Positions 59,386 through 62,269 of a stretch of DNA of 64,000 bases are shown here, piece after piece. The notes below the pieces were generated by a model. It had not been told where the DNA came from and did no database searches. It was given only the letters and a program-made list of their open reading frames with translations. Position 1 is the stretch's first letter. Each line of letters starts with the position of its first letter. This DNA is from Parvivirga hydrogeniphila (lineage in GTDB: Bacteria; Actinomycetota; Coriobacteriia; Anaerosomatales; Anaerosomataceae). The translations under genes were made by a program, and so were the position numbers. Location: positions 62,001 to 126,000 of the forward strand of contig NZ_JAMCCO010000003.1 in assembly GCF_023371205.1 (NCBI RefSeq). Reading direction: 5' to 3'.

Positions 59386-59930
59386 CAGCCCATCACCTCT
59401 TCGCGCACGACGGCGACGTACGGGAGGTTCCGGTAGCGGCCGCCGAGGTCGATGCCGTAGCCGACCACGAACACGTCAGGGATCTCGATGCCGCGGTACA
59501 CGATGGGGACGTCGGCGATGCGGCGAGCACGCCGATCGAGCAGCGTGCACACCGCGAGGCTCGCAGGCGACCTGCCTGCGAGCACACCGAGCAGGTAGTG
59601 GAGCGTCAGCCCGGTGTCCACGATGTCTTCGACGACGAGGACGTGCTTGCCGGAGACGTCCTCGTCCAGGTCCTTCACGATACGGACCGTCTCGGCGCTC
59701 CCGTACGACGATATCGCCATGAAGTCGAGCTTCACGTCGAGCTCCACGCGACGGCTCAGGTCGGCCAGGAACACGAGGCTTCCTCGCAGCAACGAGACGA
59801 GCACCAGGTCCTTGCCGCGGTAGTCCTCCGTGATGCGCGCCCCGAGACGCACGCAGATGTCCGCGATCTCCTCTTCCGTGAGCAAGACGCGTTCGATGAG
59901 CGGGTCATGGATCGTGTAGTAGCCGCTCAC
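59385..59930 (-). CDS. hpt: Hypoxanthine phosphoribosyltransferase
   Basis: 181 residues. Salvages hypoxanthine and guanine with PRPP. LVSLLRGSLVFLADLSR, the PRPP loop HVLVVEDIVDTGLTL (about 95-109) and DVFVVGYGIDLGGRYRNLPYV are characteristic. The GTG start overlaps the stop of the upstream gene; its stop overlaps the channel gene (ATGA). In many Gram-positives hpt lies by tilS and ftsH; neither is visible here. Confidence 0.95.
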   Translation of the reverse strand: MSGYYTIHDPLIERVLLTEEEIADICVRLGARITEDYRGKDLVLVSLLRGSLVFLADLSRRVELDVKLDFMAISSYGSAETVRIVKDLDEDVSGKHVLVVEDIVDTGLTLHYLLGVLAGRSPASLAVCTLLDRRARRIADVPIVYRGIEIPDVFVVGYGIDLGGRYRNLPYVAVVREEVMG

Positions 59931-60391
59931 GGCATCCGGCCTTCGCTAGGCCCGAGGCCTTCGTCCGGGGCCACCCCGCCGCCTTCCTCGTGTGGCATCT
60001 CGCGCCCCGGGATGCCGAACTTGAACAGGAGCTTCTTGAAGTCTTTCTGGTACAGGAGCAGGATCTTCACTTCCGGGTACAGCTCTTTGAGCCTCCGCAC
60101 CTTGCGGTTCTTCTTCGTGACGAGCTTCTGGCTCATGGTCGTGAGCTCGAGGTAGAGGTCGTAGTCGGGCAGGTAGAAGTCGGGCGCGAACGACGCGATG
60201 ACGTTGCCGCGGGAGTCCCACTCGATCGGGAAGGTGGTCGGCTCGTACTCCCACCGCACGTGATAGAAGTCCAAGATCCGTGCCGCGACACGTTCACTAG
60301 GGTGCGCGAACGCCGTCCGGGCCGCCTTGTCCGTCACAGGCAGCCCGTCGAACGTCTCGTGCTCGGACGGTGCAGAGACCATGCGTGTCAC
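59927..60391 (-). CDS. Conserved-looking protein with a possible PD-(D/E)XK nuclease-like fold
   Basis: 154 residues, GTG start overlapping the stop of the MerR gene. The core has SERVAARILDFYHVRWEYEP (about 32-51), APDFYLPDYDLYLELTTM (about 69-86) and KLVTKKNRKVRRLKELYP. The order E..PD..E-x-T..K is like the PD-(D/E)XK/DUF559-type fold, but the expected catalytic Lys is Thr (ELT) unless a later lysine substitutes. The tail is Gly/Glu-rich. Genes of this type next to hpt and FtsR-like genes occur in Actinobacteria (inference from layout). Function unknown. Confidence 0.55.
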   Translation of the reverse strand: MTRMVSAPSEHETFDGLPVTDKAARTAFAHPSERVAARILDFYHVRWEYEPTTFPIEWDSRGNVIASFAPDFYLPDYDLYLELTTMSQKLVTKKNRKVRRLKELYPEVKILLLYQKDFKKLLFKFGIPGREMPHEEGGGVAPDEGLGPSEGRMP

Positions 60392-61098
60392 GTCACGTCT
60401 TCGAACGTCCTCGCGAGCGCACGGTGCAGCAACGCGCTCTTGAGCGTCGCAGTCAGCTCAGTGAGCTTGGCGAGCGCTTCCAGCAGCTGTTGCCGGACCT
60501 CAGGCGTCCTGCTCATGTACGCGGGCATGAGGACCTGTGAGAAGAACGCCGCTTCCCGCTCAGCGAACGTCTCGTACATCCGCAGGTGCCGTGGCTCGAT
60601 GCCGAACTTGCGCAGGTCCCAGCAGGCGTGAGCGATCGCCACATCTGCCTGAGGAAGCTCGTCTCCGGACTCGCCTTTCACGAACGCGATGAGGCCGAAG
60701 TCCTCCAATTCGCGCAGGAACGCGACCGGGATGCCGAGCGACTCGGGAGCCGCCGAGAGCGGGACCGTCTCCGCTGCCTCCAGAGGCAACCGGGCCGTCT
60801 CTGACGACGCGACGACATGCGCGATGTCGGACGGCACGCGCCCTTTGTCCAGGTCGTCGAGACGCTCGCGGATGACGGCCAGCGGCATGTAGTGCTCCTT
60901 CTGGAGCGTCAACACCAGCTCGAGCCGCGAGACGTCCGCCTCGTGGAACTTGCGATACCCGCCAGCCGTGCGCTCAGGGCTGACGAGCCCCTCCTCTTCC
61001 AAGAAGCGCACCTTCGAGATGGTCAGGTCCGGGAAGCGGGCCTTGAGCTTCTCGACGACCTCGCCGATGGTCATGTAGTCCTTGTGAGCGGTGGGCAC
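60388..61098 (-). CDS. MerR-family regulator, FtsR-like
   Basis: 236 residues. The N-terminal winged helix reads MTIGEVVEKLKARFPDLTISKVRFLEEEGL (key: TISKVRFLEEEGLVSPERT, about 24-42), the FtsR form of the MerR DNA-binding domain with an extended first helix, then a helical effector region. FtsR activates ftsZ in Corynebacterium and is encoded by odhI/garA-type FHA genes (established). The FHA gene lies just upstream here. GTG 61098 has GGGAGGAGG; longer in-frame starts overlap FHA. No ftsZ in the window. Confidence 0.82.
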   Translation of the reverse strand: MPTAHKDYMTIGEVVEKLKARFPDLTISKVRFLEEEGLVSPERTAGGYRKFHEADVSRLELVLTLQKEHYMPLAVIRERLDDLDKGRVPSDIAHVVASSETARLPLEAAETVPLSAAPESLGIPVAFLRELEDFGLIAFVKGESGDELPQADVAIAHACWDLRKFGIEPRHLRMYETFAEREAAFFSQVLMPAYMSRTPEVRQQLLEALAKLTELTATLKSALLHRALARTFEDVT

Positions 61099-61099
61099 G

Positions 61100-61552
61100 C
61101 TAGACACCTCCTCCCTCGAGGAAGAGCAGCTGGAACCGCCCGATCTGCACGAGGTCGCCGTGCTTGAGGGTGGCCTTGTCGACGCACACATCGCCGACGT
61201 AGGTGCCGTTCAAAGAACCCGCATCGGCGATGGTGACGCCGTCCGGACCTACCTCGATGACCGCGTGCGACCTCGACACGGTGACGTCGTTCAAGAAAAT
61301 GTCGCTCGCCGGGTTGCGACCGATCGTCAGGCTGGACCTGTCGAGGTAGAAGCGCTCTCCGGCGTCAGGACCCTTGCGGATCACCAGCACCGGAACGTCT
61401 GCGGTCTCAGCTCCGAGATCCGCTGTCGCTCCGGGCGCAAAAGCCGAGACGGGCTCGAACGACGCGGTGTTCTCCTGCAGCCGCGCTCCGCACGCTGCGC
61501 ACGTCTTCGCGCTGTCTGGAGCTTCAGCGCCGCACGCCGGACACACCTGCAT
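61100..61552 (-). CDS. Zinc-ribbon FHA-domain protein
   Basis: 150 residues. The N-terminus is a CPACG...CAACG zinc ribbon (about 4-25), and the C-terminus a forkhead-associated domain with LTIGRNPASDIFLND, VSRSHAVIE and LNGTYVG (about 75-120). FHA domains bind phosphothreonine. Its place by an FtsR-like gene mirrors garA/odhI, but those have an ETT(S) phosphorylation motif rather than a zinc ribbon; no ETTS is seen here. ATG 61552 follows GGAGG. Partner kinase not in the window. Confidence 0.88.
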   Translation of the reverse strand: MQVCPACGAEAPDSAKTCAACGARLQENTASFEPVSAFAPGATADLGAETADVPVLVIRKGPDAGERFYLDRSSLTIGRNPASDIFLNDVTVSRSHAVIEVGPDGVTIADAGSLNGTYVGDVCVDKATLKHGDLVQIGRFQLLFLEGGGV

Positions 61553-61584: not shown

Positions 61585-61845
61585 CTAGTCGAGGAACCCG
61601 AACTCCCTGGTCTTGAAGGAGTGCGCGATCTCCTCTTCGAGCGCGCTCACCACTTCGGGGTTCTCGAGGACGTGCGCAAGCTTCTCCTCGTTCAACCGGT
61701 TCTTGACGTACGGGTCATTCAGCACGTCGGTGAGCTTGCGGCCATTGTGGACCTCGCGGACGATGTACTCGACCACGCGCTCCTCCACCACGTCTGCAGC
61801 CATCTCCTCCAGGAAGGCCTGGAGCTTCTCGGTCAGGCTCGCCAC
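61585..61845 (-). CDS. Small helical protein of unknown function
   Basis: 86 residues, GTG start with GAGGAG six bases upstream. Helical and acidic: LQAFLEEMAADVVEERVVEYIV then TDVLNDPYVKNRLNEEKLAHVLENPEV (key: NDPYVKNRLNEEK, about 43-55). The second half looks like a small helical bundle repeated elsewhere in actinobacterial hypothetical proteins (uncertain). Genes lie between the FHA and RsiG-like genes in one operon. Function unknown. Confidence 0.65.
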   Translation of the reverse strand: MASLTEKLQAFLEEMAADVVEERVVEYIVREVHNGRKLTDVLNDPYVKNRLNEEKLAHVLENPEVVSALEEEIAHSFKTREFGFLD

Positions 61846-61876: not shown

Positions 61877-62182
61877 CTACTGCTCGTCGTCCTCGTCTTC
61901 GGTGACGTCGACCGTCGAGACGCCCCGGAAGTCGTTCGCGAGGATGTCGATCAGCCGCTCGATGTCGTGCGGCGATACCACATCCTTGCCGCTCTGGCGC
62001 TCCTCTTTCAGGCGCCGGACGAGCTCCGCGCGCAAGATGTCGATCTTGCCGTGCAGCACACGGCGACGGTAGCTCACGCGTTGCTCCTCGGCGTGCAGCT
62101 CATCGAGCAGGGCTCGGAGCTCCTCGATCGACTTCTCTTCCAGGTTGACGAGCGGAGTGTCCTCGCTCTTCTTCTCTGCCAT
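61877..62182 (-). CDS. RsiG-like anti-sigma factor (cyclic di-GMP-binding helical protein)
   Basis: 101 residues, mostly two helices. The segment EQRVSYRRRVLHGKIDILR (about 33-51) follows the RsiG signature E-x3-S-x2-R-x3-Q-x3-D with E, S, R and D in place but His where Gln is usual. In Streptomyces, RsiG holds sigma WhiG inactive when bound to cyclic di-GMP; Rubrobacter has a one-motif homodimer form (established). This protein has a single motif, as in the homodimer form. It has a good extended -10 promoter and heads the FHA-MerR-hpt run. No sigma factor gene is nearby. Target unknown. Confidence 0.68.
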   Translation of the reverse strand: MAEKKSEDTPLVNLEEKSIEELRALLDELHAEEQRVSYRRRVLHGKIDILRAELVRRLKEERQSGKDVVSPHDIERLIDILANDFRGVSTVDVTEDEDDEQ

Positions 62183-62215
62183 CGCCGCCCCCTCCGTTCC
62201 TCATCTCGAATCTCA

Positions 62216-62224
62216 TTCTAGCAG
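62216..62224 (-). promoter_or_regulatory. Extended -10 promoter upstream of the RsiG-like gene
   Basis: On the - strand TGC is followed by TAGAAT, 34 bases before the ATG. It probably drives the run from the RsiG-like gene through the FHA, MerR, hpt and channel genes. Confidence 0.6.
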
Positions 62225-62269
62225 ACCCGACCCTCAGCCGCAGGTTGAGTGTCGGTCCTTTACCGTTCC

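What the first reader, a model, noticed from the sequence alone, without database searches (positions are those of the whole stretch)
61877..62182. One-motif RsiG-like anti-sigma factor with Gln-to-His change, heading a regulatory operon
The helix from residue 33 matches the cyclic di-GMP signature of RsiG (E-x3-S-x2-R-x3-Q-x3-D) except His at the Gln position. One motif per chain suggests a homodimer sandwiching cyclic di-GMP, as in Rubrobacter. It is followed by a zinc-ribbon FHA and an FtsR-like regulator, so a second-messenger, phosphoprotein and division regulator may be wired together here. The His may change ligand affinity or preference.
Basis: partly seen in the sequence, partly recalled or inferred. 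Interest (0 to 1): 0.68.

Follow-up and report, generated by a model that had tools for sequence, protein, structure and literature searches.

The report
c-di-GMP-armed anti-sigma factor RsiG, Anaerosomatales
This short gene encodes a well-conserved relative of a known bacterial switch protein (RsiG) that, when loaded with the signal molecule c-di-GMP, very probably holds back a sigma factor that turns on the cell's main surface pilus gene; the family is known, but its presence across this order of bacteria, its pilus target and its ancient gene neighbourhood appear not to have been described.

Summary
The 101-aa ORF is a genuine single-motif RsiG (Pfam RsiG, E=1.3e-19; Rubrobacter RsiG 7lq4, E=7e-11), with motif E33-x3-S37-x2-R40-x3-H44-x3-D48. 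His at the Gln position is no novelty: it was found in every single-motif RsiG locus read here, is reported as frequent, and the His-bearing Conexibacter RsiG binds c-di-GMP (Kd 25 uM) and not c-di-AMP. RsiG and WhiG share one distribution: 65 and 66 of 69 Anaerosomatales genomes, none of 327 other Coriobacteriia. A WhiG-type promoter (TMAAG-N14/15-GCCGATA) stands before the major type IV pilin in 29 of 30 loci of the order (shuffles 0.05), the window's own genome included; it has no flagellin. So the best reading is a (RsiG)2-(c-di-GMP)2-WhiG switch controlling pili, as in Rubrobacter, in a lineage where it was not reported. The neighbourhood rsiG-FHA-ftsR is kept across several deep actinobacterial lineages; a functional link is plausible (FtsR-like operator upstream) but unproven. 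New member of a known kind.

The parts
61877..62182 (-). rsiG: single-motif RsiG anti-sigma factor; motif E33, S37, R40, H44, D48
   Evidence: PF22802 70 bits; PDB 7lq4/7lq2/6pfj; AlphaFold: one 46-residue helix 19-64 plus short C-terminal helix 71-83
62215..62220 (-). -10 element TAGAAT with extended TGC (62223-62221): probable housekeeping promoter of the operon
   Evidence: TGnTAnAAT-like element seen in most of the rsiG upstream regions printed; no WhiG-type promoter in any of 30
62229..62253 (.). FtsR-like 25-bp dyad GACCCTCAGCCGCAGGTTGAGTGTC over the -35 region
   Evidence: best-scoring of 30 loci with a matrix of two published FtsR sites; group mean 6.4 against 2.8 in shuffles; motif from PMC6683498. 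Suggestive only
61585..61845 (-). 86-aa conserved protein with no family match, between rsiG and FHA
61100..61552 (-). zinc-ribbon FHA protein, related to OdhI/GarA (113.7 bits, below the 200-bit equivalog cut-off)
60388..61098 (-). ftsR, MerR-type regulator
   Evidence: NCBIfam TF_FtsR_Actino 217.8 bits, cut-off 150

Best explanation
The gene encodes a single-motif RsiG. Two copies form an antiparallel coiled coil that binds a c-di-GMP dimer through the two E-x3-S-x2-R-x3-H-x3-D helices. In that armed form it sequesters the genome's only WhiG sigma factor. When c-di-GMP falls, WhiG is released and transcribes the major type IV pilin gene (and a few others) from TMAAG-N14/15-GCCGATA promoters. 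Shown by computation: family membership, motif, partner, c-di-GMP enzymes, co-distribution, promoter at pilin. Inferred from the solved Rubrobacter and Streptomyces complexes: homodimer, ligand binding, sequestration, direction of control.
For: RsiG profile 70 bits and PDB matches. One WhiG at 285 bits, more similar to S. venezuelae WhiG (2e-92) than to any FliA, with K37/G41/R42 equal to Sv K57/G61/R62, the sigma2 residues that touch c-di-GMP, kept in all 24 order-wide WhiGs where the pattern could be read. Twelve GGDEF domains over cut-off. RsiG in 65/69 and WhiG in 66/69 genomes of the order; neither over cut-off in the other 327 genomes of the class. WhiG-type promoter before the major pilin in 29/30 loci, 0.05 expected from shuffles, 0 on the other strand; exact consensus found in 13 genomes of the order, 0 in the reversed control, 9 of 13 before pilin genes. 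No flagellin, but several type IV pilus ATPases.
Against: No binding or transcription data for this organism. The monomer model cannot show the homodimer and the fold search was uninformative. The glycine-rich linkers noted for other single-motif RsiGs are weak here. Residues of RsiG that touch WhiG in Rubrobacter are partly different (Rr D39 is N13, K60 is Q34, R72 is K46). Four genomes of the order lack RsiG and three lack WhiG; most are incomplete, but not all.
Confidence: 0.87

Rival explanations
1. The RsiG binds and restrains WhiG, but the His variant has drifted to weak or different ligand use, so c-di-GMP is not the physiological signal.
For: The position stacks on guanine in the Q-type structures (PMC8325347); the His-type C. 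woesei RsiG alone binds about twofold more weakly than the Gln-type (25 against 12 uM).
Against: His is fixed across many lineages; with WhiG the His-type affinity is 1.7 uM and c-di-AMP is not bound; residues E, S, R and D, the last two giving guanine specificity, are invariant in the 17 aligned relatives; the genome encodes 12 GGDEF domains.
Confidence: 0.06
2. RsiG here works mainly inside its operon, as a partner of the FHA protein or FtsR, rather than as a WhiG anti-sigma factor.
For: rsiG-FHA-ftsR order is kept across Anaerosomatales, Aquicultor- and Solincola-type genomes and Thermoleophilia, while whiG lies about 74 kb away.
Against: RsiG is absent wherever WhiG is absent in the rest of the class; WhiG keeps the c-di-GMP-contact residues; FHA and FtsR are adjacent in many actinobacteria whose upstream gene varies (PMC6683498).
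Confidence: 0.05
3. Chance coiled coil with a motif look-alike.
For: Long charged helices often match short patterns.
Against: Pfam E=1.3e-19, 24 of 42 helix residues identical to R. radiotolerans RsiG, one copy in nearly every genome of the order.
Confidence: 0.01

Closest known systems
Single-motif RsiG of Rubrobacter radiotolerans (PDB 7lq2, 7lq3, 7lq4)
   Same: One motif per chain, same helix (24 of 42 residues identical), WhiG partner, predicted control of type IV pili
   Different: His instead of Gln in the motif; different class (order Anaerosomatales of Coriobacteriia); target here is seen at the major pilin gene across the order
Single-motif RsiG of Conexibacter woesei and other Thermoleophilia
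   Same: His in the motif; rsiG followed by FHA and ftsR in Thermoleophilia loci read here
   Different: About 55% identical over the core; no 86-aa gene in the Solirubrobacter loci; many Thermoleophilia carry flagellar genes (PMC10746217)
Twin-motif RsiG of Streptomyces venezuelae (PDB 6pfj, 6pfv)
   Same: Same motif and WhiG partner
   Different: Two motifs in one chain, monomeric, controls sporulation
odhI/garA-ftsR cluster of Corynebacterium and Mycobacterium
   Same: FHA gene directly before ftsR
   Different: Upstream gene varies there; here it is rsiG; FHA protein has a zinc ribbon

Membership tests
RsiG (single-motif type) | Profile match to RsiG family | tested here: met
   PF22802, 70 bits against cut-off 27
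RsiG (single-motif type) | E-x3-S-x2-R-x3-[Q/H]-x3-D motif, one copy | tested here: met
   E33, S37, R40, H44, D48; invariant in 17 aligned sequences; the [Q/H] form is the published motif
RsiG (single-motif type) | Long coiled-coil helix with flexible N- and C-terminal extensions | tested here: met
   Helix 19-64, short helix 71-83, low-confidence ends
RsiG (single-motif type) | Antiparallel homodimer | not testable with these tools
   Only monomers can be predicted here
RsiG (single-motif type) | Binds c-di-GMP and not c-di-AMP | not testable with these tools
   Needs purified protein; measured for relatives with Gln and His
RsiG (single-motif type) | Cognate WhiG sigma in the same genome | tested here: met
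   G000:C3:49533-50213, 285 bits; c-di-GMP-contact residues kept
RsiG (single-motif type) | c-di-GMP turnover enzymes in the genome | tested here: met
   12 GGDEF matches over cut-off
RsiG (single-motif type) | Glycine-rich linkers either side of the helix | tested here: inconclusive
   Relatives have a G(G)-D-V-I-S-G stretch after the helix; the window protein has SGKDVVSP; no clear N-terminal glycines
FtsR | Match over the curated FtsR cut-off, next to an FHA gene | tested here: met
   217.8 bits against 150
OdhI/GarA | Match over the curated OdhI cut-off | tested here: not met
   113.7 bits against 200; related FHA protein, not filed as OdhI

The most novel reading that the evidence does not exclude
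rsiG, an OdhI/GarA-like FHA protein and FtsR form an ancient co-regulated module of deep-branching Actinomycetota, in which FtsR controls its own operon and hence the level of the c-di-GMP-armed anti-sigma, so that piliation, central nitrogen-carbon status and cell division are set together; type IV pili would then be the ancestral output of the RsiG-WhiG switch.
Probability: 0.25. Interest if true: 0.68.

Novelty: new member of a known kind. Interest (0 to 1): 0.47.

Why it matters
The 2021 study found single-motif RsiGs only in Rubrobacteria and Thermoleophilia and had promoter evidence for pili from one genus. Here the switch is present through a whole order of Coriobacteriia, with its pilin promoter kept in nearly every pilin locus read. 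Two lineages with the same target suggest that pilus control is old, possibly older than sporulation control in Streptomyces. It is directly testable: cultivated Anaerosomatales are non-motile and densely piliated, and one makes its pili only on ferrihydrite (PMC9686372), so c-di-GMP would be a candidate signal for that response.

Tried and rejected
Fold search of the monomer model gave no match under E=3.6, as expected of a lone helix. A WhiG-type promoter before rsiG itself was looked for and not found in 30 loci, so no feedback on rsiG is proposed. The strict consensus TAAA-N15-GCCGATAA with two mismatches in the own genome gave 21 sites against 9 in the control, too noisy for a regulon; only exact or near-exact sites with conserved position were used. 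A flagellar role was rejected because no flagellin is present. The generic sigma-70 scan did not pick up the rsiG promoter. The published range of RsiG was taken from the main text only; its supplement was not available. Rubrobacter's own rsiG neighbourhood was not among the 80 loci returned, so its gene order was not tested.

Full report
OBSERVATION. The minus-strand ORF 61877-62182 encodes 101 aa and carries the motif E33-x3-S37-x2-R40-x3-H44-x3-D48. It matches Pfam RsiG at 70 bits, cut-off 27, and the crystallised RsiG of Rubrobacter radiotolerans and of Streptomyces venezuelae. Over the coiled-coil helix, 24 of 42 residues equal those of R. radiotolerans. AlphaFold with 17 sequences gives one helix, 19-64, and a short helix, 71-83, with low-confidence ends. 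That agrees with a chain that can only make the antiparallel pair by dimerising, but the dimer itself could not be predicted here.

THE HISTIDINE. Schumacher et al. 2021 (PMC8325347) state that in twin-motif RsiGs the first-motif Gln is frequently His, write the motif as [Q/H], and measured the His-bearing single-motif RsiG of Conexibacter woesei: Kd 25 uM alone, 1.7 uM with WhiG, no binding of c-di-AMP; the Gln-bearing Rubrobacter protein gave 12 and 0.9 uM. In the present data His was at this position in all 29 loci read from the order (one further locus was not parsed) and in all 80 loci of a wider scan that allowed Gln as well as His (that list is ranked by similarity to the window protein, overlaps the first, and so is biased towards it; one of the 80 lacks the motif's Glu). 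His is thus the ordinary state of this branch.

PARTNER AND LIGAND. The genome (1.84 Mb, 9 contigs) has a single WhiG at G000:C3:49533-50213, 285 bits against a cut-off of 189.6; three weaker sigma matches are below the cut-off. Its closest solved relative is S. venezuelae WhiG (2e-92), ahead of FliA (6e-53). The three sigma2 residues that touch c-di-GMP in both solved complexes, Sv K57, G61, R62, are K37, G41, R42 here, and K, G, R were kept in all 24 WhiGs that could be read. Twelve GGDEF domains are over cut-off.

CO-DISTRIBUTION. RsiG is over cut-off in 65 of 69 genomes of the order and in none of 327 further genomes of the class; WhiG in 66 of 69 and in none of the 327. Exceptions are mostly incomplete genomes. 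The named scan places the order in Anaerosomatales: the closest record is Coriobacteriaceae bacterium EMTCatB1, 94% identical in RsiG, and another hit is titled Anaerosomatales. The same scan finds single-motif RsiG in Candidatus Aquicultor and Candidatus Solincola genomes, beyond the two classes named in the 2021 paper.

TARGET. The exact flagellar-type consensus TAAA-N15-GCCGATAA occurs in 13 of 69 genomes of the order and never in the reversed control; in nine of the 13 the next gene is a type IV pilin, several with a prepilin peptidase behind it. In a separate approach, pilin genes were found by protein similarity and their upstream DNA was then scanned: 29 of 30 carry T[A/C]AAG-N14/15-GCCGATA, 103 to 131 bases before the conserved pilin stretch, with unlike spacers; 0.05 are expected from shuffles and none lies on the other strand. 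The thirtieth has TAAAG with CCCGATA. The window's own genome has TCAAGTGGCGCGCGAGAATGCCGATAC before the pilin at C2:81751-82014, beside pilus ATPase genes at C2:83564-91318. Its one exact-consensus site lies before a 5TMR-LYT sensor histidine kinase at C1:311483. Order-wide, the relaxed site gave 89 hits against about 33 in the control, so sites away from pilin genes need care. The pilin query came from a promoter-bearing locus and the pilins are related, so the 30 are not independent; the unlike spacers and fixed position are the argument. No flagellin is present.

NEIGHBOURHOOD. The order rsiG - 86-aa protein - zinc-ribbon FHA - ftsR holds in the order. In the 80-locus scan an FtsR/MerR-type gene follows rsiG, mostly within 1.7 kb, in all but one contig, including Thermoleophilia such as Solirubrobacter and Conexibacter; an FHA gene between them was seen directly in most loci inspected in detail. 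Kraxner et al. 2019 (PMC6683498) report odhI/garA-ftsR as conserved in actinobacteria with a variable gene upstream. Here the upstream gene is rsiG. A TGnTAnAAT-like -10 element lies before most of the rsiG genes printed, and no WhiG-type promoter does, so rsiG does head the operon under what looks like the housekeeping sigma. Over the -35 region of the window lies GACCCTCAGCCGCAGGTTGAGTGTC, close to the FtsR site AACCCTAAAGTAAAGGTTGAGGGTA. As a group the 30 upstream regions score above shuffles (6.4 against 2.8, sd 2.6), but only 27% pass the 95th percentile. FtsR control of the operon is therefore a lead.

VERDICT. The protein is a new member of a known kind in a lineage not listed in the 2021 study. 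Its likely job is the known one: c-di-GMP-armed sequestration of WhiG, with the major type IV pilin as the main target. The added value is the order-wide pilin promoter, the strict pairing of RsiG and WhiG, the wider range of single-motif RsiG, and the old linkage to FHA-ftsR. A literature search combining RsiG with these taxa found no report (open-licence papers only).

Noticed in passing
window 62229-62253: Imperfect 25-bp dyad resembling the published FtsR binding site, over the -35 region of the rsiG promoter; suggests FtsR controls its own operon.
   Followed up: partly
window 61585-61845 (-): 86-aa protein family with no Pfam or NCBIfam match, sitting between rsiG and the FHA gene in the order and in several other deep lineages, absent from the Solirubrobacter loci; relatives share a DPYVKNR stretch.
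   Followed up: partly
window 61100-61552 (-): FHA protein has an N-terminal zinc ribbon followed by a conserved Thr stretch (TASFxPV in the order, ETTISLxP or ATTATY elsewhere) that recalls the phosphorylated ETTSVF stretch of OdhI/GarA (recalled, not tested).
   Followed up: partly
L045 / L074, G000:C1:311483: Exact flagellar-type promoter before a 5TMR-LYT sensor histidine kinase, a second likely WhiG target in the window's genome.
   Followed up: partly
L080 5294-5321 (+), G000:C2: TCAAG-N15-GCCGATAC site about 80 bases before a start codon (ATGAAGAGGACG...), possibly another WhiG target.
   Followed up: no
window 59927-60391 (-): 154-aa protein downstream of ftsR with no Pfam match.
   Followed up: no
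L002, G000:C3: whiG lies between a XerC/D-type recombinase gene and a response-regulator gene.
   Followed up: no
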